A DNA stretch of 40,333 nt from Coriobacteriia bacterium (GTDB lineage: Bacteria; Actinomycetota; Coriobacteriia; Coriobacteriales; Eggerthellaceae), in the NCBI GenBank assembly GCA_030536315.1, contig JAUNQF010000010.1, positions 1 to 40,333 on the forward strand. Direction: 5' to 3'. Position numbers and translations under genes: made by a program. Position 1 is the first letter of the stretch. Each line of letters begins with the position of its first letter. Of this stretch, positions 2 to 39,800 are shown piece after piece. The notes under the pieces were generated by a model. That model had not been told where the DNA came from. It saw nothing but the letters and a program-made list of their open reading frames with translations, and ran no database searches.

Positions 2-1423
2 TCGGCGGTCCTGGCAATTGCACTTTCAGTTCAAGCTTTTGCTTTCACAAGCAGCGAAGACAGGCTTTATGGCGAAACATTAAGCTCTCGTGGAATGTCG
101 GTTAAAAATTGTCCTAACATCACGGCTCATTACGCGGTTATGATTCACCAAAATGGAGAGGTGATTTACGAAAGAAACCCTTACGAACATGCAAAAATTG
201 CCTCGCTAACTAAAATTGTTACAGCAATAGTTGCGCTTGAAAATTCCGAAATGACAGATGAAGTTGTTGTTACTCAAAAGGCCTATGACATAGGGGAGAG
301 CTCTGCTGGTGTTTGGCCAGATGACAAGCTGGATATGCTAAGTGCTCTTTATGCCTTACTTGTTCCTTCGGGAAATGACGCAGCGGAAGCAATTTGTCAA
401 AGCATCGGACAAAAATTAGTTGATTCCAAAGATGACCGCATCCGCAATAAAACAAAAGAAGAAGTTGCAAGCGAAGCGAAAGAAAGGGGCGTTTCCGAAG
501 AAGATGTTGAGGACGTCTTTATAACGGACAACGAGCAAGCCTTCGTCCGTCTTATGAACCTAAAAGCCGAAGAGCTTGGTTGCGAAAACACAAGCTTCAC
601 TAATCCTCATGGCTTGGCTGACGAAGAATTCGCAAGCGATGATCAATATTGTTGCGCGATGGATATTGGTGTAATTACCAGGTACGCAATGCAAAATGAG
701 ATGTTTAGAAAAATTGTTGGCGGGGGAGATACGACAATTACAGTTGACAGAAAAGGACAAAAAGTAACGCTCGAGCTTCACTCTACAGATATTTTGCTTG
801 GCAATTTTGAAGGATGCATTGGTGTTAAAACTGGAGTAACTGATATTGGAGGCGCTTGCTTCAGTGGGGCAATGAAGGATTCCGATGGAGATGAAATCTA
901 TACAATAGTCTTGAAGTCCGATGATGAAACGCAACGTTTTGTTGACACTCAAAATCTCTTCAATTGATATTTGCAAAATAAGATCAAGCTCGACCTGACC
1001 GACACTGGCATTAAAGACACAATGAAGGATGGTGACGACGAGAAAGAAGTTGGAGTTGTTGCAAATCTTGCTCACTCCGAATGAGTTGATTGCGCGTTTC
1101 CGGTTACTCTTCGTGACGAAGATAGAGGCATTCCTGTTCTTGCATGTGCTGGAAATGTTCATCTTAAAATAGAGCCATCTGAAATAAAAGGAAGCTTTAA
1201 GGCCGGCGATAAAGTAGCTGAAATTGTCTTAACTCAGCATAACAGGGAAGCTGCAAGGCTCGATCTAATAGCCGTTAAAGACCAACCAGGTCCTAATATC
1301 TTTCAAATGATTGGCGTAGCTTTTGATAGGCTTGGGCGAAATATTTCTGGAGAAAGTTGCGTGGCCGACAGCGAAATCTTCGCAAATTGTGATAAGATTA
1401 ACGAACTTAACGCAAAGAGTTAA
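2..1423 (+). CDS. D-alanyl-D-alanine carboxypeptidase (peptidase S11, PBP5 type), 5' end missing
   Basis: Secreted serine enzyme that trims the terminal D-Ala from peptidoglycan stem peptides. The gene enters from the left edge, so the start codon is outside; 473 residues are visible. They open with the end of a signal peptide (hydrophobic run ending in AFA). The three S11 motifs are present: SLTK (catalytic Ser and Lys) near base 204, SGN near base 374 and KTG near base 828. A charged Lys/Glu-rich insert of about 45 residues lies between SGN and KTG. TGA codons at 965-967 and 1082-1084 are read as Trp (LFN-W-YLQNK and HSE-W-VDC); translation then runs through the PBP5-like C-terminal beta domain to TAA at 1421. 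Stopping at 967 would remove that domain. The FHA gene follows after 12 nt, so the two are probably co-transcribed. The exact paralogue (dacA, dacB or dacF type) cannot be told. Confidence 0.9.
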
Positions 1424-1435
1424 AGGGGAGTTATC

Positions 1436-1888
1436 ATGAGCACAAAATGTCCAATTTGTTTACAAGAATTCGAAGACGGAATTGAAGAATGTCCTGCTTG
1501 TGGCTTTAAATTCAGTGGAAATACTGAAAAATTTAAGCCAATTAAGGCAGATAATAACGAAGAAGGCAAAAACACCCAGGGTATAGACAAGAAATCCAGT
1601 AAAACCCCTGCTCTACGCGTTATTTCAGGCCCTCAAGGAGAGCTTGTTTTGCCGTTAACAAAAGACAATATGACCATCGGACGCAGCCCAAACAGTGATA
1701 TTTTCCTTAATGACAGGACTGTATCGCGTGAACATGCGGTCATATCTAAGAATGGGGACGTATACCAAATTGCCGATAAAAACTCTTATAACGGACTCTG
1801 GATCAACAATAATAACGTTTCTGTATCTAATGTTAAGGATGGAGATCTAATTCAAATAGGCGTATTCTTCTTACGCTTTGAATGCTAA
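1436..1888 (+). CDS. Zinc-ribbon and FHA domain protein
   Basis: A 150-residue protein likely to bind phosphothreonine peptides. The N-terminus has a zinc-ribbon pattern with CPIC near residue 5 and CPAC near residue 20. A polar linker follows (about residues 30-58), then an FHA domain (about 62-150) with the hallmark GRSPNSDIFLND, SREHAVI and NGLWINN blocks. The start is set by an AAAGGGGAG ribosome binding site 5 nt before the ATG. In actinobacteria, FHA proteins often read Ser/Thr kinase signals at the cell wall. Sitting 12 nt after a carboxypeptidase gene fits a wall-associated role, but no kinase gene is in view and the partner is unknown. Its Trp is an ordinary TGG and the stop is TAA. 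Confidence 0.88.
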   Translation: MSTKCPICLQEFEDGIEECPACGFKFSGNTEKFKPIKADNNEEGKNTQGIDKKSSKTPALRVISGPQGELVLPLTKDNMTIGRSPNSDIFLNDRTVSREHAVISKNGDVYQIADKNSYNGLWINNNNVSVSNVKDGDLIQIGVFFLRFEC

Positions 1889-2087
1889 TTTAATCTAATG
1901 TATATCTCTAACAGGGCATATACCCATATATTCCAATTTCAATCTACTTTACATAACATATATTATCATACTTTTGTCTTTTTGTTATTCTTACCATAAA
2001 ATAAATTGTTTTATAAGGTGTAATTACTAGGGGTTGAAAATAAAACGGCCTTAAAACGCAAATAAAAGCCTCGTTTTACCTGGGGTT
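1889..2087. other. Convergent intergenic region, no gene seen
   Basis: These 199 AT-rich bases separate the convergent ends of the FHA gene and dut. The only structure I see is a weak inverted repeat (TAAAACG at 2052-2058 against CGTTTTA at 2072-2078, 13-nt loop). It could help end transcription, but it is too AT-rich to call a terminator with confidence. Confidence 0.4.
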
Positions 2088-2534
2088 TTAGCGTCCGGAG
2101 CTTCCGAAGCCTTTTTCGCTTCTTTCGCTTGAATCTAAGGTTTCAGTTTCAATTAATTCGGCATTTGCGAAAGGAACTATCATCATTTGAGCGATTCGGT
2201 CGCCTATAGATATTTCAAAACTTTCATTTTTATCTGTATTTAGTAAAATTACAGAAATTTCACCGCGATATCCGCTATCAACCAATCCTGGAGCATTTAC
2301 TACAGAAATGCCATGTTTTGCAGCCAGGCCACTTCGTGGTATTACTAAACCTGCAAAACCTTCAGGAATGGCCATAGAAAAGCCACAATGGATCACTTTT
2401 CGCTCTCCGGGAGCAATTATTACCTCTTCGGCGCTTTTTAGATCAAAGCCAGCATCACCAGAATACGCATATTTAGGCATTCCAGGGCAATTTTCTAGTG
2501 GTTTAGCTGGTATTTTAATGGATTTCTCGCCCAT
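2088..2534 (-). CDS. dut: Deoxyuridine triphosphatase (dUTPase)
   Basis: Hydrolyses dUTP to dUMP and pyrophosphate, keeping uracil out of DNA and feeding dTMP synthesis. The 148-residue protein has the normal length and all five motifs of the trimeric family: AGFDL (I), PRSGLA (II), the uracil-binding NAPGLVDSGYRGE (III), GDRIAQ (IV), and the Gly-rich C-terminal arm RSEKGFGSSG (V). Its ATG overlaps the nrdR stop by one base (TAATG), which suggests translational coupling and explains the lack of a separate ribosome binding site. Pairing with NrdR, a repressor of ribonucleotide reductase genes, puts dNTP supply and dNTP cleaning in one transcript. Confidence 0.96.
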   Translation of the reverse strand: MGEKSIKIPAKPLENCPGMPKYAYSGDAGFDLKSAEEVIIAPGERKVIHCGFSMAIPEGFAGLVIPRSGLAAKHGISVVNAPGLVDSGYRGEISVILLNTDKNESFEISIGDRIAQMMIVPFANAELIETETLDSSERSEKGFGSSGR

Positions 2535-2980
2535 TATTTTAGATCTTTTAGGACCTTTTTAAACTCGTCAACATTGGCAAATTCCTTATATACGCTGGCA
2601 AAACGTACATATGCCACCTGATCAAGCTTCGCAAGACGCTCAAGAACCATCTCGCCTATGTCATCAGACTTAATTTCAGTTATTCCGTTGTTTCGAAGCT
2701 CGCCTACAATCTCATCAATAAGCGCTTCGATATCTTTTGGGTCCACCGGACGCTTCGCACACGAAATTAAGATTCCGCGGAAAAGCTTATCTCTGTCAAA
2801 AGCCTCCGAAGATCCGCCGCGCTTCGTAACAACAATTGGCTTTTCTTCCATGCGTTCATAAGTAGTAAAGCGATGCTTGCATTTTAAGCACTCTCGCCTA
2901 CGACGAATTGACGAAGTATCTTCGGTCGGACGCGAATCAACAACGCTTGAATCTTCGAAACCACATTTTGGACAACGCAT
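2534..2980 (-). CDS. nrdR: Transcriptional repressor NrdR
   Basis: Nucleotide-sensing repressor of ribonucleotide reductase genes. The 148 residues begin MRCPKCG. A zinc ribbon (CPKCG near residue 3, CLKCKHRF near 31) binds DNA and is followed by an ATP-cone domain (about residues 47-137). I chose the ATG at 2980 because AAAGGGG lies 5 nt upstream and the family starts at MxCPxC. An ATG 39 nt further upstream would add an unsupported 13-residue leader. A candidate NrdR operator lies just upstream (2995-3010), suggesting self-regulation. A possible -10 box (TAGAAT) is at 3032-3037. The gene is divergent from lexA, a pairing known in Actinomycetota. Confidence 0.95.
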   Translation of the reverse strand: MRCPKCGFEDSSVVDSRPTEDTSSIRRRRECLKCKHRFTTYERMEEKPIVVTKRGGSSEAFDRDKLFRGILISCAKRPVDPKDIEALIDEIVGELRNNGITEIKSDDIGEMVLERLAKLDQVAYVRFASVYKEFANVDEFKKVLKDLK

Positions 2981-2994
2981 TTTTACCCCTTTAA

Positions 2995-3010
2995 AAACTA
3001 CATATTGTGT
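2995..3010 (-). promoter_or_regulatory. Candidate NrdR box upstream of nrdR
   Basis: The + strand 16-mer AAACTACATATTGTGT matches the palindromic NrdR consensus, recalled as ACACTATATATAGTGT, at 13 of 16 positions. It ends 14 bases before the nrdR start, downstream of the likely start of transcription. NrdR boxes usually come in pairs about three helical turns apart. I see no good second box, which lowers confidence. Confidence 0.4.
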
Positions 3011-3093
3011 AATTTGCAATAATGTTGCGCTATTCTACCATAATATTTATACTAAATATAGATAATTTGTTCAGAAAATTAATTTTTAATTTA

Positions 3094-3123
3094 TTGCACA
3101 AATGTTTGATAAAGTGCTAACAT
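3094..3123 (+). promoter_or_regulatory. lexA promoter (leaderless)
   Basis: A -35 box TTGCAC (3094-3099) and a -10 box TAACAT (3118-3123) are 18 bp apart. Only 9 nt separate the -10 box from the lexA ATG at 3133, so transcription should begin at or within a few bases of the start codon. The bases before the ATG are a run of C with no Shine-Dalgarno sequence, which supports a leaderless message. The spacer holds an imperfect inverted repeat (CAAATGTTTG) that could be the LexA operator. Confidence 0.7.
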
Positions 3124-3132
3124 AAGCCCCCC

Positions 3133-3756
3133 ATGAGAAAAAAACAAACATTATATACTGCTAAAGCAACTGCTAACTGCCAAGAAATCTTGCAGATTAT
3201 CAAAGACTTTATTGCCGATCACGATTACAGCCCAACGGCTCGTGACATCATGAAGCGTACGAAGCTCAAGTCTGTATCTTCGGTTCATGCATATATTATC
3301 GAGCTTGAAAACAAAGGGCTAATTACTCGAGAAGACAACAAGTCTCGTTCAATCAAGTTAAGCGGAAGCGCCGGAACTTCCCCACGAGTTGACTTACCTG
3401 TTGTTGGCGATGTGGCCGCCGGCACTCCAATTTTAGCTGAGCAAAATATTTCCGAAAACGTCACTCTCCCGGCGGACCTTGCCGGGCGTGGAAATTTCAT
3501 CTTGAAAGTTCGCGGGAATTCCATGATTGATGCGGGAATTTATGACGGCGACAAAGTTATCGTCCGTCAACAAAAAACCATCAAGAATGGTGAAATTGCT
3601 GTAGTTTTGCTTGGCGACGAAGCTACCGTCAAGCGTTTCTACAAAGAAAAAGACCACTTCCGTCTTCAACCTGAAAACAAACGCATGAAACCTATTATTG
3701 TTGATGAGTGCGAACTTTGCGGAAAAGTTATTGGTCTATACCGCAGCATTCGATAA
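3133..3756 (+). CDS. lexA: SOS response repressor LexA
   Basis: Represses DNA-damage genes and inactivates itself by self-cleavage when RecA filaments form. The 207-residue length is standard. An N-terminal winged helix (about residues 10-75, with SPTARDI and SSVHAYI) is followed by the S24 peptidase domain. The cleavage bond is the Ala-Gly in VAAGTP, the nucleophile is Ser in GNSMIDAG, and the general base is Lys in ATVKRFY. The start has no ribosome binding site and sits 9 nt after a strong -10 box (leaderless). The last 29 bases overlap the 3' end of convergent miaA. recA lies about 7 kb away on the other strand. Confidence 0.96.
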   Translation: MRKKQTLYTAKATANCQEILQIIKDFIADHDYSPTARDIMKRTKLKSVSSVHAYIIELENKGLITREDNKSRSIKLSGSAGTSPRVDLPVVGDVAAGTPILAEQNISENVTLPADLAGRGNFILKVRGNSMIDAGIYDGDKVIVRQQKTIKNGEIAVVLLGDEATVKRFYKEKDHFRLQPENKRMKPIIVDECELCGKVIGLYRSIR

Positions 3757-4663
3757 TTTGCGAAACCGCCGAATCTAAATCGGCATCGTCATAATCAATC
3801 CAATTAATTCGTTTGTCCTTGTTAAACCAAGTGCGTTGACGCTTCGCATATTGTCTTGTGGCAGTTTTGATTTGCGAGGACGCTTCATCGAGCGTGACAT
3901 TTCCATCTAAATATTCAACAATTTCTTTGTAGCCAATTGCAGCCGCCGAGGTCAATGCGTCGCGCAACCCATGATCAAGCAAGCCTTTAACCTCGTCAAC
4001 AAGCCCGGCCTCAAGCATTTTATCTACACGAGCATCAATACGCTTTCGCAAAATTTCAGGATCTACCTTAAGTCCAAAAAATTTCGCGTTGTATTTTTGA
4101 GGAAGATTTTGCAAATTATCAACTTGCTTCGCATAAGATTTGCCTTCTTCAAAAATCTCTAATGCGCGAATAACTCTAACAACATTGTTCTCATGAATTA
4201 AATTTGCGCTTTCAGGATCTTTCTCTTGAAGAGTTTTCCACAACTCATGCGCGCCTTTTTCATCGGCAATTTTTTGATACTTCTCACGAAGCGGATTATC
4301 AACTTGCTCGCCCTTTGGAAAATCGTAATCATCAATTGCTGCTCTAATATAAAAACCAGTGCCGCCACAAAGAATTGGCGTCTTGTCTTCGGAGAAAATT
4401 TTATCAAAAGCATCGCGAGCGTAATCCTGGAATAAAGCAGCTGAGAAAGCTTTGCTTGGATCAACAATGTCGAGTCCTCAATGCTTAACGCTGCGTTCAT
4501 TGATCGGAATTTTGCCTGTTCCAATGTCCATTCCTTTATAAATTTGCATCGAATCAGCGCTGACCACTTCCCCATTAATTTTTGCAGCAAGTGAATTTGC
4601 AACATTGCTTTTTCCCGTAGCCGTGGGACCGCAAACAACAATTATTTCATTATTTTTATTCAT
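3728..4663 (-). CDS. miaA: tRNA dimethylallyltransferase MiaA
   Basis: Adds a dimethylallyl group to A37 of tRNAs that read codons starting with U, the step before MiaB. The 311-residue protein has the P-loop GPTATGKS near residue 12, [17 protein letters not shown] (tRNA and substrate contacts), GGTGFYIRA, and the C-terminal [11 protein letters not shown] block. A TGA at 4478-4480 (residue 62) is read as Trp inside [11 protein letters not shown], directly before the conserved DIVDP motif; the frame is open on both sides. The start has no ribosome binding site, but an extended -10 box lies 10 nt upstream (leaderless). The stop TAA is inside the lexA 3' end on the other strand. Confidence 0.95.
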
Positions 4664-4673
4664 CGCTTTTAAT

Positions 4674-4682
4674 ATGTTATCA
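4674..4682 (-). promoter_or_regulatory. miaA extended -10 promoter (leaderless)
   Basis: On the minus strand TGATAACAT forms an extended -10 element (TG-N-TAACAT). The -10 hexamer ends 10 nt before the miaA ATG, and no Shine-Dalgarno sequence intervenes. No clear -35 box is seen, as is common for extended -10 promoters. The hexamer equals that of the lexA promoter. Confidence 0.55.
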
Positions 4683-4694
4683 CAAATAATTGTG
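4681..4694. promoter_or_regulatory. Inverted repeat between miaA and the dehydrogenase
   Basis: CACAA-ATAA-TTGTG is a perfect 5-bp inverted repeat with a 4-nt centre. It abuts the miaA -10 on one strand and lies just before a possible -10 (TAAAAT, 4696-4701) for the dehydrogenase on the other. Its position suits an operator acting on both promoters. The regulator is unknown. Confidence 0.4.
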
Positions 4695-4747
4695 CTAAAA
4701 TTGTCTTGTTAAGCGAAATCTTCTCATAAACTAACAAAGGAGCACCC

Positions 4748-5977
4748 ATGAAAACTATCTATTTTGATAAGGACATTCCTCGCGTTGTAGCAACAAAAGG
4801 TATTGTTTCTGTTGGCAAGAAAGTTAAAGCTGCCAATAATCTTTTATATGGCGGGCTTAATGCTGTAAAGTATGCAAAAAACATCCCAGAACCAGCTCTT
4901 CCTGCAGAAAATTGAGTTAAAGTTCGAAACATTGCCTGTGGCTTGTGTGGTACTGACATGAGCTTTTTTAAGGCGACAACTGGAACAAATTCTGCATTTG
5001 AACCAATTCCGGCAAGTAAGAAAACTTACCTTGGTCATGAAAATGTTGGCGAAGTAATTGAGGTCGGTAGCGCCGTTAAAGATTTTAAACTTGGTGACCG
5101 CGTTGGAATTCGCGCTTATATGGCAGGTTGCGATAACAAAGATTTGCCTCGTTGCCGCCATTGCCGAGAAGGAAATTATAACTTCTGCACAAATTATGGT
5201 GTGGACCCGAAATTTGATCTTGAATGAATTGGTGCTGGTTGAGGTGATGTTTTTATTGCTCCTGAGCAGCAACTTTATAAGATTATTGATGAAATTGACA
5301 ACGAAGACGCATGCATGATTGAACCTGCTTGTGTATCTGTTCATGCAGTTTTAGTTGACCATCCAAAGCCAAAGGAAAAAATTTTGGTTATGGGTTGCGG
5401 AACAATTGGTCTTGGAGTTGTACAAGCCATTAAAGTTGTTCAGCCAGATTGCGAACTTTGAATTATGGAGCGTGTTCCAACAAAAATTGACTTCGCAATG
5501 AAACTTGGAGCTGACCATGTTTTGAAGGGCGATCCTCTTGAGGCTACTGCAAAAGCTACTGGCGGATCTGAAGTTTATAAAGGCATGAGCGAAAAGAACA
5601 GGTATTTCTTCGGCGGCTTTGACAGAGTTTATGACTGCATTGGTGGCGATTGGTCTAACACTACGGCCGTTCGTCTTCTTGCCGCTCGCGGAACAATGAT
5701 CAAAATTGGACACCACATGTGCGCTATTACTTATGACGAATCTCCCGTTTGGTGGCAGGAACTTAAACTTATTGGCGTTGACGCTCATGGCATGGAAGAA
5801 TGAGAAGGCGAAAAAATGTACACCTTTGACTTGGTTCAAAAATGGATTAAGGAAGGAAAATATTCGGTTAAGGGTTTTGTAACCAATCACTTTAAATTAG
5901 ATGATTACAAAGAAGCTATGAAACTTGCGCTTCTGAACCCGCCAGATGTAATTAAGATTGTTCTAGACTGCGAGTAA
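4748..5977 (+). CDS. Zinc-dependent alcohol dehydrogenase family protein (MDR)
   Basis: A 409-residue medium-chain dehydrogenase/reductase that would oxidise an alcohol or sugar alcohol with NAD(P). Catalytic zinc ligands fit Cys in CGLCGTDM (about residue 63) and His in GHENVGE. A structural-zinc lobe has four Cys in the spacing C-x7-C-x2-C-x7-C (from about residue 132), with a wider first gap than the usual C-x2-C. The Rossmann motif GCGTIGLG is near residue 218. Five TGA codons (4913, 5225, 5240, 5459, 5801) are all readable as Trp, for example LEWIGAGWGDVF, where cofactor-domain relatives carry aromatic residues. Four other Trp are TGG. AAAGGAG precedes the ATG. Flanking genes are on the other strand, and its 3' end overlaps miaB by 15 nt. 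The dense TGA use argues against recent import from a standard-code donor. Substrate unknown. Confidence 0.88.
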
Positions 5978-23012: not shown

Positions 23013-23041
23013 ATTATACCCTATTTCCTGCTAAATAACAA
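23013..23041 (-). promoter_or_regulatory. rpsO promoter
   Basis: TTGTTA (23036-23041), 17 bp, TATAAT (23013-23018) on the minus strand. The -35 box lies 3 bp from the TAG stop codon of the upstream surface protein gene. The consensus -10 fits a highly expressed ribosomal protein gene. Confidence 0.75.
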
Positions 23042-26000
23042 GAATTATAAAAAATAGTGACATTTCAAAGACGCTTGTCATAAATGAATAAAGTGTATTG
23101 GTCACACTAGTCTCTTCAACAGCTTCTACAGCCTCTACAAGCTCTTCAATATTTTCATCATCAGTAACACTTTCCTGAACAAGTGTCTCTGTCAACAAGT
23201 CGTTTGCTGTAAGCTCTTGGTCTGTCTCAACAAGCTCTTCTTCATCAGCATCTCTTGCTGCAGGACTTGTCGTATTTAATAAAACTGCAGTTTTATCAGA
23301 GAAATAGCCTTCGTTCCCCTCGCCTAGGCGACAAACCTTTGCATAGCTTCCTGAATCTTTATTTGCGTCATATTCAAGAGACGACCCATCACTGCCAATA
23401 CCCTTTAGATTAGTAGAGCCAGTAAATGTTGAACCAGAAAAGGCGTAATAGTGGTCACTAGATCATTTTAGAGGATCGGCGTATATAGATTTAACGTTAG
23501 TAGTATGAAACACCGTTCTTATATCTCTTGCAGCCTTATTGCTGAATGACGAAATATCGATTATCTGATCTTCTACAGTGACCCGGTTAAACATTGAACT
23601 AAAATCACTTGTCCTAGTGGTGTCCATAGACGTCAGCTCAAGCTTAGCTGCTTTAGCAAAGGAAAACATTTGAGATACAGATTCAAGATTGCCTGTATTC
23701 ATGAGGTTTGTAAAATCGCACTGGCAATAACCGTTAGCATAAAATCTTCCAAGCGCATGGAACATACAAGTTGCTTTCTTGACATTTGTCATGTCGATAT
23801 TTTCCAGTCCCACAACAGACTGCGCATATTCAAGATATGCAAATAAATACTCGGCATTATTTAATGTTATACAAGATAAAGGTTTTAGAACCTCAACCTT
23901 TGTTATATTGTCAAAATCGTTATTTCATGGAATGTCTTCTTTTTTACTGAACCCAGAAAGAATAGAAACAGCTTCTGTTTCTGCTTTGTCTTTTACGAAT
24001 GTCGAAGACAAATATAAGGTTTTGCCATTGCCTTCTTCGCTATCTACTACTCCCCAAAACGCACTTGGCTTTTCCGTAAAATAGCCAGGGGTTTCTAAAG
24101 TGCTAACACGCGCATAATCACCATCTTTGTGACTTTCGTCAAATGGAGTTTTCGAGCCGTCTGAACCATGACCTACAAGATTTGTGCAGAGATGGAAAGT
24201 ATTAAATTTAGAAGAAATATAATGGTCGGACTGTCATTTTGAACTATCTGCATAGATTGTAGTAACATTAGTAACTTGCCAAAACATACTGCCTATATTA
24301 TTAGCTTTATTATTACTAAACGATGAAAGATCCATAATGCCATCATTTATTGAAAAGCCTCCAAACATTTCATCAAAGGTTGTTACCTCTTCTGTATTCA
24401 TGCCTGTAGGGTTAAAAGACGTAAAATGAGCGTAATAAAACATCTGGTTTGTAGCATTTAACGCTGTTGATGTGGTTAGGTTTTGAATGTCAGCAGTACA
24501 ACCTGAACCATATCTTCCAAAATGCGCAAACATAAGAGAAGCCTTTTTAACATTTGTCATGTCAAGGTTTTTTAAGCCTGTCAAAGATGTAACATAACTA
24601 AGAGATCCAAACAATCGCTCTGAACTATTAAGTTTAATCTTTTTTGAGGTTTCTAATATTTCAACTTTAACAATGTCATTCTTATATGAATACCACGGAG
24701 CATCAGACCATGACGCAAACCCATTAAGAATGCTTTCGTCTGGTGTGTCGGCTTTGCCTGGGACCTCCTCGCCTGCAAGATATAGTGTTTTTCCATTTCC
24801 GTCAGCGCTATCTTTAACGCCCCACCATGGTACATCAGGGGCTATAACATTTATGGAGATTTTATAGTCTCTTGAGCTGATGGAACCATAGTCCGTAACT
24901 GAAGAATACAATATTTGCAAACTGCCATTATGGGTAGAAATTGTTGCCGTAGAATTAGCAGTGATAACTGGATACCCATCTGCATTTAACGTCATTGTAA
25001 AATCATTTTGAAGCCCTCCTCCTAATGTAAATGTAGGTGTTGGGGCATGTGCAGCTCTTTCATCTGCGCTCAGGTCTGGCTTCGAGGTAAAGGTATATGA
25101 ACCTCCTTGAATAACCTGAATTTGAGCAGGTGGATTTCAGCTAAATTGCCAGGGGCGAACAGAGTTATATATTTCGAGGTATTTGTTATCTAACGAATCG
25201 GTAATAGCTTTCTGCTTTGCCATGGCATCAGCTGAATTTTGACTATTTTTCATAATGTCTTGTTTTTGAGAATCCGTGACAAGAGCATTTAATTCAGCTT
25301 TGGAAGCTTCTTTTTTGGAAGCAGACATATTACTTAAGCTGTCAACTTGTGTACAACGATCTGAGAGAGACTTGTCAATTATGGCAATAATCGCCTCTTT
25401 TTCAGCTACATCAGAATCGTATGAAGCGTTAATTGAATCAAACAGCGCAGCATACTTTGAATTTATATTATTAAGTTTATTTGAGTAACTCGCATGATTT
25501 AGCGTTTTGTCAAGTTCTGCCTTTAAAGTATCAATCTCCTTAATTTCTACATTAAAGCTTTCAAGATTATCGGTATAGATAAGAGGAAACTTTGAAGCCT
25601 CAAGTTCTTTGAGCTCTTTATTTTTATTCTCTAGAGCAGCTTTGGTTTGACTAATTTCGGCGCTCTTATTTGCTTCTTGTTTATTTACCTCAGCTTCTAT
25701 TTGAGAGAGCTCGGCCTGCATTGATTTTTGCAAGTTGTTTAAATCAGCTGTTGTCGCGCTTTCTTCTTCGATGATTTTATTTAAGTCTTTGTCGACATCG
25801 GTTTCAACTTCTTGAAAGGCGGAAACATCGCTATTATAGTCTTCTTCTCAAAGACCGCCCTTTTTGTATAATGAGTCGGCCAATTTTCGCTGAGTAGCTA
25901 TTTGTTTCTTCATCACTGCTTGTCTTTCTTTGACAATAGCAGTTTTTTGATCCTTTTGAACCTTGCTAAATTCTGCACTTATACTTGAGATGTTAGATTC

Positions 26001-27650
26001 TATAGACTTATCAAGGGAGTCTCAGTCAGCCTGCGAAGTTGTGTCATCTATGTCATCAACATGAGACTTAATTTCTCCAAATTTTGCTGTATAGGAAAGT
26101 TTTACTTCGTCGCTTACTCAGGTATCGTTATTAATCGCTCCTGTTTTTGCATCAATGCTTGCTTTTTTCTTCTCGATGTCTGCAGCTTTAGCATCTTGCG
26201 TTTCTTTTGTTTTTTTAGCTACTTCAGCAATTATTTCGCTGGAACTAGCAATAAATGAAGCTTTAGCGGCGTCGATACCTGCTGGGCTGTTGGCGTCATC
26301 TATATCTGCTTTTGCATTATCGGCGGTGGTTGATAGGTCTTCCTCAAAAGCCTCCCTGTCTGTATCAAATAGGTATTTTTCTGGATATTTTTCTTTGTCT
26401 TGAACTTCGTCCTTATAGGTTTTTTCAGAAGCTTCCAGATCGGCTTTTGCAGCAGATTTTTGTTGTGCTTCTGCTTGACTGCTTGCTGCTTCGTATTCTG
26501 CAGAAGTTGCAGCAACCTCTTGTGAGGTATCTTCCTTTGCTTTATCTAGAGAATCTCTGCTGGTTGAAGCCAGCACCTTAGGAAGTGTAGTGCTCTTGGT
26601 TGTATTAAGTTTGGTAGTGTACTTTTCTTTTTCTGAATCTTTCAACCACGCATCATCCTTGATTTCGTTAGATTTTGTATCGATGTTAGAGTTCCACGTT
26701 TCAGTAAAATCATTTTTCTCTTTGATGGTTTGGGCTTGTGTTGCTTTTGCTTGCTCGATTAAGTTAGCGACATATTCATCAAAACTTAGAAGAATCTTAG
26801 ACAATTCTTCTGGGTCCGAAGTTCCAGCAATCAAAGCATCAACTTCGGCCTTCTTTGTAGCTATTTGAGCTTCAAGCGCCGCTTTATCTTCTGCAAGAAG
26901 TTCTGTTTCTGGGAAGGTTTGCGTGTCGTTTATAACTTCATAAAAATATTCGACTTCTTCTTCGGCAATTTCTTCAGCTTCTTCTTGGCTCATGGTTTCG
27001 AAGGTGAATGAAATACTCAAGACATCTTTTCCTATCAAAGATTTAGCTGCTTCTGGCCCTAAATCCTTAACGCCAAATTTCAAGGCATTGTCCCATATTG
27101 CGATATTGCCTTCGGCTTCTTTGCCAGCAACATCATCATAAATTTTGTAGTCGTCTATAAAGACTTGCCATGTGCAATTTTCGGGAACTTCGATATCTTT
27201 ATTTAAATCAAGCTTAATACCTTTAAAAGTTGCAACGCCGTCTTGGGATTTAACAAAGCCGTCTTGGAAGTTAACGCTTCCTGTTTGCTCGTCAACGGTC
27301 GCAATAACCTTGTCGCTTCCAACAACAGAGCCATTTGGGTTTGCTAAAGCATTCACGCTGTTTGAAACAAGGCCGCAGAACAAAAACGCAGCGGCAATAA
27401 TAGCAAAAGGCGATGCTAACAACTTACCTTTAATGCTTGTCGTTCGTGTTGTTTGAGAAGCGACAATGCTGTTGCGACTAAAGCTCGCCTTAAAATAAAC
27501 AACCATAGCCAACGAAGCAAATATCACTGCTAAAATAATAGCTACAATATTAAGCATGTCTCCAGTTTGTACGCTGCCCCCACCTGTAGTGCCTGGGTCC
27601 ACATTACCTGCAGCAACAAAACTAATTACAGTATTAATCGTAGTTTGCAT
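23031..27650 (-). CDS. Large repeat-containing surface protein with DUF285 (BspA-type) domains
   Basis: A single frame of 1539 residues once seven TGA codons (26118, 26022, 25848, 25137, 24234, 23925, 23463) are read as Trp. In order: a TGGGSVQTGD stretch then a hydrophobic helix and basic residues (27-60); a second hydrophobic segment ending ALA (78-103), probably the export signal; a beta-rich domain (to about 230); a Lys/Glu/Ala/Ser-rich helical region (about 230-835); a beta domain (about 838-940); two tandem DUF285 units of about 257 residues (941-1454) with NVKKA..MF and IYAD..KW signatures; an acidic linker (about 1460-1512); and a hydrophobic C-terminus. The two units end SKWQSDHY and LKWSSDHY, both Trp as TGA. 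AAAGGAG precedes the ATG, with its own promoter. Likely an adhesin or stalk protein on the cell surface; ligand unknown. Stop is TAG. Confidence 0.85.
23289..24830 (-). repeat. Two tandem DUF285-type repeat units in the surface protein
   Basis: Unit 1 (24063-24830, 256 codons) and unit 2 (23289-24062, 258 codons) align along their length: WWGVKDSADGNGKTLYL with FWGVVDSEEGNGKTLYL, GLKNLDMTNVKKASLMF with GLENIDMTNVKKATCMF, and DYARVSTLETPGYFTEK with SYAKVCRLGEGNEGYFSDK. The divergence shows an old internal duplication rather than a recent one. Confidence 0.85.
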
Positions 27651-27676
27651 AATGTCTCCTTTACATAATTGAAATT

Positions 27677-37358: not shown

Positions 37359-39800
37359 TTACTTACGAACCTCAGCGCCGGTGGATTTGCAAACTTTTTC
37401 GACAAGCTTCGAATGCACGGCTTCAACTTCTTCGCTTGTAAGAGTTTTCTCTGGGTTGTTGTATTCAAGCGAATAAGCCATGCTCTTTTTGTCTTTGCCC
37501 AAATGCTTCTCGCTTTCAAAGACATCGAAAAGTTGAACGCTCTTTAATAGGTTGCCGCCCGCCGAAGTAATGCGCTGCATCATCGTCTCGTGAGTAACGC
37601 TCTTGTCAACGGTAAACGCAACGTCCATCGAAATGCCTGGGAACTGTGAAATTTCTTCGCAATTTCCAAAGTCCGAAGACGAGGCAATCAAGCCTTTAAC
37701 ATCGAGCTCAAAAGCTGCGACCGGTTTATCGATTTCAAATTTAGAAGCTAGCTGCGGGTGAACTTCGCCGATTCAACCAAGAACGGTGCCCTTCGAAGAC
37801 ACTTCGCAAGCTCGACCCGGCTGCAAAAATTCAAGATCAGTTTCTTTAAACTTGACCTTTGGAATGTTTAGGCTCTCCAAAATATTTTCAACAACGCCCT
37901 TTGCGTCGAAGAAATCAAAATCCGCGACCTTATTGTTTCACGCGTTATTGATTGCTTTGCCGCTCATAACACCAGCAACTTTTTGACGCTCACGAGGAAG
38001 CTGCTGACCGTTACGCGCGCTGAACACGACGCCAATTTCATAAAGAGAAATATCCGCAACGCCTCTATTTGTGTTATAAGCAACACTGCGAAGAAGCCCA
38101 GGGATCAAACTTTGGCGCATATATTTTTGCTCGGCATTCATTGGGTTGATAAGCTCAACTGGCTTGTCCTGCCCCATAAGTTTGCCGTCGTTTTCTTCAG
38201 CGAAGGCATAGCAAACAGTTTCATGCATACCGCTCGATATCAAAGTGTCGTTCAAAACACTACGAAGACGCTGGTCAGGAGTTCTAACTCCAACACGCTT
38301 CGCGCTCTTCGGAAGCGTGCTTTCAATTTTATCCATACCATAGATGCGCAAAACTTCTTCGTAAAGATCAATTTCGCGCTCAAGATCAGGTCTAAAAGTT
38401 GGTGTGATAACCTTCAAAATTTTTCCGGTTCCAATAACTTCGCACCCAAGATTCTTCAAAGTTTTTGTGACAAACGAAGATTTAATATCTGCGCCCATCA
38501 TTTTTTGGAAGCGCTCAACTCTAAAGTCGAGGCGATTTTTCTTCGTCTTGATTGGCCAGGCGTCCACAATCGAATCCTTGGCGGTGCCACTTGCACTACA
38601 AATTTTACCACCTGCAAGCTCAACTATCAGCGCCGCCGAAGCCGCAGAAATAGCTTCGATATCAGCATCATCAACTCGTCTTTCATATCGCATGGAGCTC
38701 TCAGAAATCAAAGCGAGGTTCCTGCTTGTGCGGCTTGTATGAGCCGGACTAAAAGTTGCCGTCTCAAGTAAAATCGAAGTTGTGTTGTCGTCAACTTCGG
38801 AGTTTTCACCACCCATAACACCAGCTAGAGCAACAGCTTTATCAGGTGTTGAAATTAATGTCATGTCAGACGTTAGGACGCGGTCTTCGCCATCGAGAGT
38901 CTTAAACTTCTCGCCATCCTTGGCGCCGCGAACAACAATGTCAACCTTGCCACTTTTGCTCTTGAGTTTGTCATAATCAAAAGCGTGCAGCGGTTGACCG
39001 AACAAATACAATATATAATTAGTAGCATCAACAATGTTATTAATGCTTCTGCAACCCATAGCGTTTAAGCGCTCAACCATCCATTTAGGCGAAGGACCCA
39101 CCTTAACACCCTTAATGACTCGAGCAGTATAACGAGGGCATCGCTCGTCTTCGCGGATTTTAACCGTTGGCATGCTGGCTTTTTCAAATTCGCACTTTTT
39201 AAGTTTTTCAGCCATGTCCTTAAGCGGATTTTTATATTTAACATCATAGATTGCCGCAATCTCGCGAGCACAACCAACAACGCTCAAGCAATCAGGCCTG
39301 TTAGGAGTGATTTCAGTATCAATTACGGTGTCGGAGAGGTTTAGGTAATCCGCAATTGGAACGCCAATCGGAGCATCCTTAGGCAAAATCATAATGCCTT
39401 CGTGGCTATCGGACAAACCAAGCTCGCGCTCGCTACAATTCATACCACAGCTCTCAACACCGCGAAGCTTCGCCTTCTTAATCTTGAAATCACCTGGAAG
39501 CACAGCGCCAATCTTCGCAACAACAACGTGGTCACCCTCTTCGAAGTTCTGAGCGCCGCAAACAATTTGAAGCTTCTCATCGCCCACATCAACTTTCGTA
39601 ACCCACATATGGTCCGAATCTGGGTGCTTTTCTTTCGATAGAATTTGTCCAGTTACGATGTTATCGAAGCCCTCGCCCGCGACCGCAACTTCTTCAACGC
39701 CAGTTCCAGTCAAATCCAGCTTGTCGCAAAATGCTTGCAAATCACCAGGTAGGTCTGGCACTTTTACATATTCGTTTAATCAATTTAGTGAAATCTTCAT
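37359..39800 (-). CDS. pheT: Phenylalanine--tRNA ligase beta subunit
   Basis: Forms the alpha2-beta2 PheRS with PheS. The full 813 residues include the N-terminal MKISLNWLNEYV, a tRNA-binding EMAP domain (about 40-155), B3/B4 editing domain, B5 domain and C-terminal FDX anticodon-binding domain. Three TGA codons are Trp: 39780-39782 (residue 7, in the near-invariant start), 37938-37940 (residue 621) and 37773-37775 (residue 676, in GWIGEVHP, a conserved motif). Under the standard code the start, one internal block and the C-terminus would be separate fragments. AAGGAGG is 5 nt before the ATG, 11 nt after pheS. Stop is TAA. Confidence 0.97.

What the first reader, a model, noticed from the sequence alone, without database searches (positions are those of the whole stretch)
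23031..27650. 1539-residue surface protein with a sorting-signal-like segment at its N-terminus
VQTGD, a hydrophobic helix and basic residues, normally the order of a C-terminal cell-wall sorting signal, occur at residues 27-60, ahead of a second hydrophobic export-like segment. The body combines about 600 residues of charged helix with two DUF285 units and an acidic linker to a hydrophobic C-terminus. The topology is unclear and possibly new.
Basis: partly seen in the sequence, partly recalled or inferred. Interest (0 to 1): 0.55.

Follow-up and report, generated by a model that had tools for sequence, protein, structure and literature searches.

The report
Surface proteins sorted by N-terminal tail
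A gut-type bacterium carries a family of giant surface proteins whose cell-wall attachment tag sits at the front instead of the end, and models suggest that the wall holds only one strand of a folded domain, which then clasps the rest of the protein.

Summary
The gene is on the minus strand (27650-23031), reads TGA as Trp and starts at an ATG behind a good ribosome-binding site; the host is most likely an Eggerthellaceae bacterium. The N-terminal module (tail of 19-47 residues with 0-2 Lys/Arg, QTGD, TM1, Lys/Arg loop, TM2 ending in AxA) is not a one-off: 12 genes of this genome and 6 of one related genome carry it. T and D are kept in 18 of 18, TGD in 16. An HMM made only from C-terminal sorting signals of other genomes recognises nine of these N-termini (P0001 itself only weakly), and the genome has two sortase-like genes and ordinary C-terminal QTGD signals. 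The same 18 genes, and no others found in 138 family genomes or a sample of 396 class genomes, share a beta domain just after AxA. Two AlphaFold models place the first 10-12 residues as a strand of that jelly roll. Best reading: sortase ties the tail to the wall, signal peptidase frees the body, strand complementation holds them together. Cleavage and tethering are inferred. N-terminal sortase motifs are known (streptococcal M26 proteases), so this is a new variant of a known kind.

The parts
27656..27662 (-). AAAGGAG ribosome-binding site before the ATG
   Evidence: sequence upstream of the start; all nine family genes read have a purine-rich G-run at this place
23031..27650 (-). the whole gene, 1539 aa, TGA=Trp, stop TAG
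27564..27650 (-). N-tail, residues 1-29, ending in Q-T; no Lys/Arg, one Asp
27612..27647 (-). residues 2-13, predicted beta strand of the jelly roll (pattern I-x-T-x-I-x-F)
   Evidence: AlphaFold2 model, mean pLDDT 89 for residues 1-10 and 70 for 11-20; alternation in 18 sequences
27558..27572 (-). VQTGD, residues 27-31, sortase-type motif
   Evidence: T and D kept in 18 of 18 family members
27492..27557 (-). TM1, residues about 32-53
   Evidence: hydropathy; helix 30-57 in the model
27423..27491 (-). basic loop, about 54-76, 5 Lys/Arg and no Asp/Glu (predicted cytoplasmic)
27342..27422 (-). TM2 / signal-peptide-like segment ending ALA at 101-103 (predicted signal peptidase I site)
26991..27341 (-). 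family-specific jelly-roll domain, residues 104-220
   Evidence: alignments, HMM hits, models and fold comparison
25191..26933 (-). charged, presumably helical stalk, residues about 240-820
   Evidence: composition
24081..24830 (-). DUF285-type unit 1, residues about 941-1190
23331..24059 (-). DUF285-type unit 2, residues about 1198-1440
23034..23096 (-). hydrophobic C-terminus, residues 1519-1539, without basic residues after it

Best explanation
P0001 belongs to a family of large surface proteins displayed by an N-terminal sorting module. The short tail crosses to the outside, TM1 runs out-to-in, the Lys/Arg loop stays inside, and TM2 runs in-to-out like a signal peptide. Sortase cuts between T29 and G30 and joins the 29-residue tail to the cell wall. 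Signal peptidase I cuts after ALA103 and frees the ~1436-residue body. The tail's strand (residues 2-13) is one strand of the jelly roll formed with residues 104-220, so the wall-bound peptide holds the body by strand complementation, and the DUF285 units are shown at the surface on a charged stalk. Shown: sequence layout, motif and AxA conservation, charge pattern, pairing of module and jelly roll, sortase-like genes in the genome. Predicted: the strand docking. Inferred: both cleavages, wall linkage and tethering. Function of the body (adhesion or binding) is a guess from DUF285 and the size.
For: 18 genes share the module: 12 here, 6 in G014. T and D of the motif are kept in 18 of 18, TGD in 16. 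A terminal A-x-A is seen by eye in 17 of 18, C9 reading S-H-A, and C16b having it in another frame than its tail. Tails have 0-2 Lys/Arg in 18, loops 4-7 in the 12 measured. An HMM from 31 C-terminal signals of other genomes finds 9 of these N-termini at E<0.01 among 149 ORFs or pieces. The genome has classical C-terminal signals with the same QTGD/STGD style and two class-B-like sortase genes; so does G014. The jelly-roll HMM, built without the tail, hits only these two genomes among 138 of the family, and with two more rows only these two among a sample of 396 of the class. All 7 hits not used to build it lie in genes with the module (C16b in another frame); 5 of the 7 had not been reported by the module searches. 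Two models with different lead sequences give strand 2-13 and 2-11, mean pLDDT 89 over residues 1-10. Structural alignments start at model residue 1-2 in 50 of the 50 rows shown and 44 of the 50 shown. The tail alternates: 0 of 18 hydrophobic at -5 and -1; 17, 18 and 18 of 18 at -6, -2 and 0 relative to the conserved F (F in 17).
Against: No experiment. P0001 alone scores weakly with the C-terminal-signal HMM (E 0.055; paralogue C10c E 4.5). Pfam Gram_pos_anchor, run on the own genome at E<=1, reported three places, none of them a family N-terminus, and P0001 has no NCBIfam hit. The motif lacks Leu-Pro, though so do C-terminal signals here. The alternation breaks at -4 and -3 (6 and 13 of 18 hydrophobic). 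The models use only 12 sequences, the same 12 for both, no PAE was returned, pTM is 0.57 and 0.54, and residues about 93-110 are modelled poorly; docking may partly reflect one chain being modelled. Best fold match is Z 7.8, in the range called common arrangement; Foldseek gave nothing at E<=0.001. A tail with no leading signal peptide must be exported N-out, unusual for a sortase substrate. For the M26 parallel, PMC7695701 says the mature enzymes are covalently linked to the surface by sortase A (passage), not held by a strand. T, G and D hold together in only 16 of 18.
Confidence: 0.48

Rival explanations
1. The module is a permanent two-helix membrane anchor. Tail and body are both outside and complete one jelly roll, but neither sortase nor signal peptidase cuts; TGD and AxA are kept for other reasons.
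For: The same models fit an uncut chain; the hydrophobic C-terminus of P0001 and four paralogues (by eye) could be a second membrane contact.
Against: T and D of the motif (18 of 18) and A-x-A (17 of 18) are kept while the helices and loop drift; a plain anchor needs neither.
Confidence: 0.2
2. It works like the streptococcal M26 proteases as described: sortase acts on the N-terminal motif and the mature protein begins some 56 residues later, without any strand tether specific to this family.
For: Same order motif-TM-mature start; motif-to-site spacing is 46-55 in five members and 73-82 in the other twelve measured, on both sides of the reported 56. PMC7695701 reports a covalent, sortase-made link for M26.
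Against: No leading signal peptide here; the tail is conserved as an alternating strand and always comes with the jelly roll, which a throw-away tail would not need.
Confidence: 0.15
3. The module is a relic of gene fusion: the sorting signal of an upstream protein joined to the signal peptide of a downstream one, with the upstream protein now lost and the tail without function.
For: The C21 ORF (L026:3992-7321) has SQTGD-TM-basic-TM-ANA between two homologous halves (33% over 454 columns), so such junctions exist here.
Against: A relic would not keep the strand pattern, T, D and A-x-A in genes of two genera. It may still be the origin of the module.
Confidence: 0.1
4. A chance resemblance: an ordinary signal anchor with QTGD by accident.
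For: P0001 alone is a weak match; Gram_pos_anchor does not report it.
Against: Family conservation and specificity in the ORF scan.
Confidence: 0.03

Closest known systems
M26 zinc metalloproteases of streptococci and Gemella (IgA1 protease/ZmpA, ZmpB, ZmpC, ZmpD)
   Same: Sortase motif near the N-terminus in a region with TM segments, mature chain starting about 56 residues downstream, very large exported body (passages in PMC9637739, PMC2225412, PMC7939560, PMC7695701). That two of the TM segments follow the motif is recalled.
   Different: M26 precursors begin with a signal peptide and carry G5 and protease domains; here no signal peptide precedes the motif, Pfam finds only DUF285 in P0001, and a jelly roll pairs with the tail. 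No M26 sequence was compared here.
Classical C-terminal LPXTG-type cell wall sorting signal (Gram_pos_anchor PF00746, TIGR01167)
   Same: Motif-hydrophobic helix-basic order and the QTGD wording used by C-terminal signals of the same genome.
   Different: Position at the N-terminus, followed by a second helix with AxA; P0001 gives no PF00746 or TIGR01167 hit.
Donor-strand complementation systems (chaperone-usher pili, TasA-type fibres; recalled)
   Same: A beta domain completed by a strand from a separate chain.
   Different: Here the strand would come from the same gene, cut off and tied to the wall; only modelled.
DUF285 proteins (PF03382)
   Same: Two tandem DUF285-type units in the body; the genome has 31 matches at E<=0.001.
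   Different: The units say nothing about the N-terminal module.

Membership tests
Sortase substrates (LPXTG-type sorting signal) | TG-type motif, then a hydrophobic helix, then basic residues | tested here: met
   Layout in 18 of 18, T and D kept in all, TGD in 16; HMM from C-terminal signals finds 9 of the N-termini, P0001 only at E 0.055
Sortase substrates (LPXTG-type sorting signal) | curated model match (PF00746 or TIGR01167) | tested here: not met
   No hit for P0001; PF00746 over the own genome at E<=1 reports no family N-terminus; paralogue C23 TIGR01167 E 0.091, 13.5 bits under cut-off 15.9
Sortase substrates (LPXTG-type sorting signal) | signal lies at the C-terminus | tested here: not met
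   Residues 27-60 of 1539
Sortase substrates (LPXTG-type sorting signal) | a sortase in the same genome | tested here: met
   Two class-B-like sortase genes in G000 (150.4 and 149 bits, just under cut-off 153.75; PF04203 over its cut-off for one) and two in G014 (160.3, over cut-off, and 132.5)
Sortase substrates (LPXTG-type sorting signal) | cleavage at T|G and wall linkage | not testable with these tools
   needs proteomics
M26 N-terminal LPXTG proteases | M26 protease domain and G5 domain | tested here: not met
   Pfam finds only DUF285 in P0001 at E<=0.01
M26 N-terminal LPXTG proteases | leading signal peptide before the LPXTG | tested here: not met
   Tail of 29 residues in P0001 (19-47 in 18 members) without a hydrophobic stretch in P0001's hydropathy scan; translation start at its head in the nine read
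M26 N-terminal LPXTG proteases | N-terminal sortase motif in a region with TM segments | tested here: met
DUF285 (PF03382) | match over the curated cut-off of 25 bits | tested here: not met
   24.2 bits for the whole protein; 23.2 bits, not over cut-off, in the genome search; the two units are 45% identical to each other, so relationship is likely
Nucleoplasmin/TNF-like jelly rolls | fold match clearly above background | tested here: inconclusive
   Best Z 7.8 and 7.6, within the range of common arrangements

The most novel reading that the evidence does not exclude
A new way to display proteins on a Gram-positive wall: sortase fixes only one beta strand of a split jelly roll to peptidoglycan, signal peptidase releases the giant body, and the body is clasped by that strand without a covalent bond. 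The same trick might explain how other proteins with N-terminal sortase motifs, such as the M26 proteases, stay on the cell although the motif lies before the body (a passage that I read calls their link covalent, so this extension is bold).
Probability: 0.4. Interest if true: 0.82.

Novelty: new variant of a known kind. Interest (0 to 1): 0.62.

Why it matters
A sorting motif ahead of the body is a paradox, because sortase links what lies before the cut. If the tail is a strand of the first domain, the paradox is solved and the prediction is sharp: a wall-bound peptide of about 20-47 residues in a non-covalent complex with a free body. It would be a detachable surface display system and suggests a test for the M26 proteases. 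The family includes very large genes (up to 5400 codons) of a small genome with a changed genetic code.

Tried and rejected
Plain signal anchor or chance: disfavoured by family conservation and by the ORF scan. Later start codon that would drop the tail: disfavoured, as all nine family starts read, and G014a (GTG start), have a purine-rich G-run just upstream. NCBIfam FILTED domain (NF052597), a weak lead from G014a (E 0.073): own-genome matches were weak, below cut-off and not at the family's genes (best 17.2 bits). The first module HMM (A1) over 100 relatives matched 31 genomes at E<=0.01; of the 30 loci looked at, 2 are N-terminal modules, 16 are C-terminal signals, 3 look like SecG and 9 I did not assign. 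TasA/camelysin-like fold was considered from the sequence; it was not listed, which does not exclude it. Foldseek found nothing at E<=0.001. The search for related loci with P0001 found no relative in genome contigs (records very near the window's genome may be left out), and with alignment A2 could not run. Papers: ten searches (on the genetic code, on Eggerthella); of these I saw the listings, and of eight papers term passages (searches gave no passage and 91 nothing on the N-terminal motif). None of the listed titles and abstract openings describes a split-domain anchor; full texts were not read. Bender & Weiser 2006 and Bek-Thomsen 2012 are not held; I saw them only as references.
Full report
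WHAT IS THERE. The gene lies on the minus strand, 27650 to 23031, and is open only if TGA is Trp. It starts with ATG after AAAGGAG. Residues 1-29 form a tail without Lys or Arg; VQTGD is 27-31; TM1 is about 32-53; a loop with five Lys/Arg follows; TM2 peaks at 77-95 and ends in ALA 101-103. After that come a beta domain (104-220), a charged Gly/Pro-poor stretch (240-820), a short region, two DUF285-type units that are 45% identical to each other, an acidic linker and a hydrophobic last ~20 residues. Pfam gives one DUF285 stretch at 24.2 bits, just under its cut-off.

HOST. The window is contig C7 of a 1.09-Mb, 75% complete assembly. The window's PheT matched 432 places in named genomes; of the best 80 kept, the top 28 (54-60% identity) are mostly titled Eggerthellaceae or genera of it (a few are titled only Coriobacteriaceae, Eggerthellales or bacterium), and the rest, at 48-51%, are Olsenella, Collinsella, Atopobiaceae and other Coriobacteria. 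That the host is an Eggerthellaceae is my inference from this. Most neighbouring genes tested are housekeeping ones, among them a D-Ala-D-Ala carboxypeptidase, so a cell wall is expected, unlike in mycoplasmas.

A FAMILY. A search of the own genome with residues 1-218 gave ten places. Reading these and later hits gave 12 genes here (C7, C10 three, C13 two, C16 two, C9, C23, C21 two) and six in genome G014, another genus of the same family. C16b is broken: the tail and TM1 lie in one frame and TM2 plus body in another. Proteins reach 5400 residues. Leave-one-out HMMs of the module find each of the 12 members tested (C16b, C21a and G014c-f were not among them) at E 4.3e-9 or better, P0001 at 6.8e-14. 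Across 18 genes the motif is TGD in 16, TSD in one and TFD in one. A-x-A at the end of TM2 is seen by eye in 17 of 18; C9 has S-H-A.

IS IT A SORTING SIGNAL? I built an HMM from 31 C-terminal signals taken only from other genomes (7 of them from G014), found by a pattern in 36 loci: two loci repeated a signal already taken and three gave none. I scanned 149 ORFs or ORF pieces of the fetched own stretches, some genes being cut in two there. Thirteen scored below E 0.01: nine are N-termini of this family, three are C-terminal signals, one is an internal signal. P0001 scored E 0.055 and C10c 4.5; three proteins with visible C-terminal signals also scored above 0.01 (0.099, 1.4, 7.8), so the model is not very sensitive for this genome. 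Pfam's Gram_pos_anchor over the whole own genome at E<=1 reported three places, none of them a family N-terminus; its controls ring in 13 of 14 genomes at that threshold. The genome's C-terminal signals read SAQTGD, GQTGD, AAQTGD, STGD, LTGD, KTSD, like the N-terminal ones. Two class-B-like sortase genes are present in this genome and two in G014; one of the own pair, with four TGA codons in it, was not reported by the PF04203 search.

TOPOLOGY. Tails of the 18 have 19-47 residues up to T, 0-2 Lys/Arg and 1-7 Asp/Glu. In the 12 members measured the loop has 4-7 Lys/Arg and 0-2 Asp/Glu. By the positive-inside rule the tail is outside, the loop inside and the body outside. No signal peptide comes before the motif.

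THE SPLIT DOMAIN. The stretch after AxA is a conserved domain for which Pfam gave no match over its cut-offs. An HMM of that stretch alone, made from 11 members without their tails, hit only G000 (12 places) and G014 (6) among 138 genomes of the family at E<=0.01; with two more members it hit only these two among a sample of 396 genomes of the class, family members included, at E<=0.001. All seven hits not used in building it lie in genes with the tail-T[GF]D-TM-TM-AxA head (C16b with the frame change; C9 with S-H-A and a partial match); five of these had not been reported by the module searches. So domain and tail go together in 18 of 18. AlphaFold2 models of P0001 1-225 and of G014a 1-218, with the same 12 sequences, both make the first residues a strand (2-13 and 2-11; mean pLDDT of residues 1-10 is 89 in both) and residues 111-220 (111-218 in G014a) a beta fold with block means of 79-94; the TM helices, the linkers and residues about 93-110 are less certain. 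Structural alignment gives jelly rolls (nucleoplasmin-like, TNF-like and others) at Z up to 7.8 and 7.6; among the 50 rows shown each time, the alignments begin at model residue 1 or 2 in 50 and in 44, so the tail takes a strand position in the fold. Such Z values can be a common arrangement, and no PAE was given. In 18 tails, positions -5 and -1 from the conserved F (F in 17) are never hydrophobic, and -6, -2 and 0 are in 17, 18 and 18; -4 and -3 are in 6 and 13, -4 being Thr in 12: on the whole the pattern of a strand with one buried face.

MECHANISM. Tail out, motif at the outer face, sortase cut at T|G joining the tail to the wall; signal peptidase I cut after AxA freeing the body; the tail's strand completing the jelly roll so that the body stays. 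The layout, conservation, pairing and sortase genes are shown; strand docking is predicted; cuts, wall bond and retention are inferred. Without this tether, sortase would anchor only a short peptide, which seems pointless.

PRECEDENT. I read passages only. PMC9637739: M26 metallo-IgA1Ps share an N-terminal LPXTG recognised by sortase A and are cut 56 residues downstream. PMC2225412: signal peptide, then a 200-residue N-terminal domain with three TM segments and the LPXTG. [quoted passage not shown] PMC7695701: the mature enzyme runs from residue 154 and is said to be covalently linked to the surface by sortase A, which speaks against carrying my tether over to M26. PMC2705793 calls it an atypical N-terminal motif in S. 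suis. So an N-terminal sorting motif is not new. Differences here: no leading signal peptide, a motif-matched family, and the tail-domain pairing. The distance from T to the end of the AxA site is 46-55 residues in five members and 73-82 in the other twelve measured.

ORIGIN. Two other arrangements suggest how the module arose. In C21 (L026:3992-7321) SQTGD-TM-basic-TM-ANA lies between two homologous halves (33% over 454 columns, E 6e-66), as if a sorting signal and the next protein's signal peptide had fused; NCBIfam gives its signal GVDTG_CTERM at 22.5 bits, under the cut-off of 29. In G053 a small protein has signal peptide-LPETGD-TM-RR-TM-AIA.

VERDICT. It is a new variant of N-terminally sorted surface proteins, with a testable split-domain tether.

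Noticed in passing
whole window; PheT 37359-39800: TGA is read as Trp in what is most likely an Eggerthellaceae genome: 35 TGA and 48 TGG in 21 chosen window genes; three TGA codons of PheT align with Trp in 80, 77 and 80 of 80 relatives, whose aligned parts hold no in-frame stops. The prfB model found only a match under its cut-off (272.5 of 370 bits; probably prfA; assembly 75% complete). Term searches of two papers on bacterial codes found no Eggerthella- or Coriobacter- words.
   Followed up: partly
L229:1501-1576 (C21:54195) and L244:1498-1593 (C4:4027-4119): The only tRNA-Trp seen (30 of 37 tRNA matches were fetched as loci; by position four matches stayed unread) has anticodon CCA with a 5-bp anticodon stem in the fold. 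A 96-nt tRNA with anticodon UCA is called tRNA-SeC by ARAGORN, odd in a genome where TGA is Trp.
   Followed up: partly
L026:3992-7321 (C21:57991-61320): One ORF holds two homologous halves joined by an internal SQTGD-TM-basic-TM-ANA, a polyprotein-like junction; an ORF with a signal peptide lies in another frame just upstream (L026:3579-4070).
   Followed up: partly
L075 (G053:C142): Small protein with signal peptide, LPETGD, TM, Arg-Arg, second TM and AIA, then a short tail: a mini version of the hinge.
   Followed up: no
window 23034-23096; L019/L020 (C10b, C10c), L025 (C9), L061 (C23): Five family members end in a hydrophobic stretch with no basic cluster after it, often behind an acidic linker; not a sorting signal, role unknown.
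   Followed up: no
L022:4757-9448 (C13b): This member ends in LPPQEDGGEG, a hydrophobic stretch and RRRFRGK, a second sorting-like signal at the C-terminus.
   Followed up: no
L024:4769-5029 and 115-4812 (C16b): Family gene broken by a frame change between TM1 and TM2; its first 62 codons differ from C16a by one synonymous codon, which suggests recent copying; the break may be real, phase variation or an assembly error.
   Followed up: partly
G000 contigs C7, C9, C10, C13, C16: 31 DUF285 matches at E<=0.001 in a 1.09-Mb assembly, many at places inside this family's giant genes.
   Followed up: no
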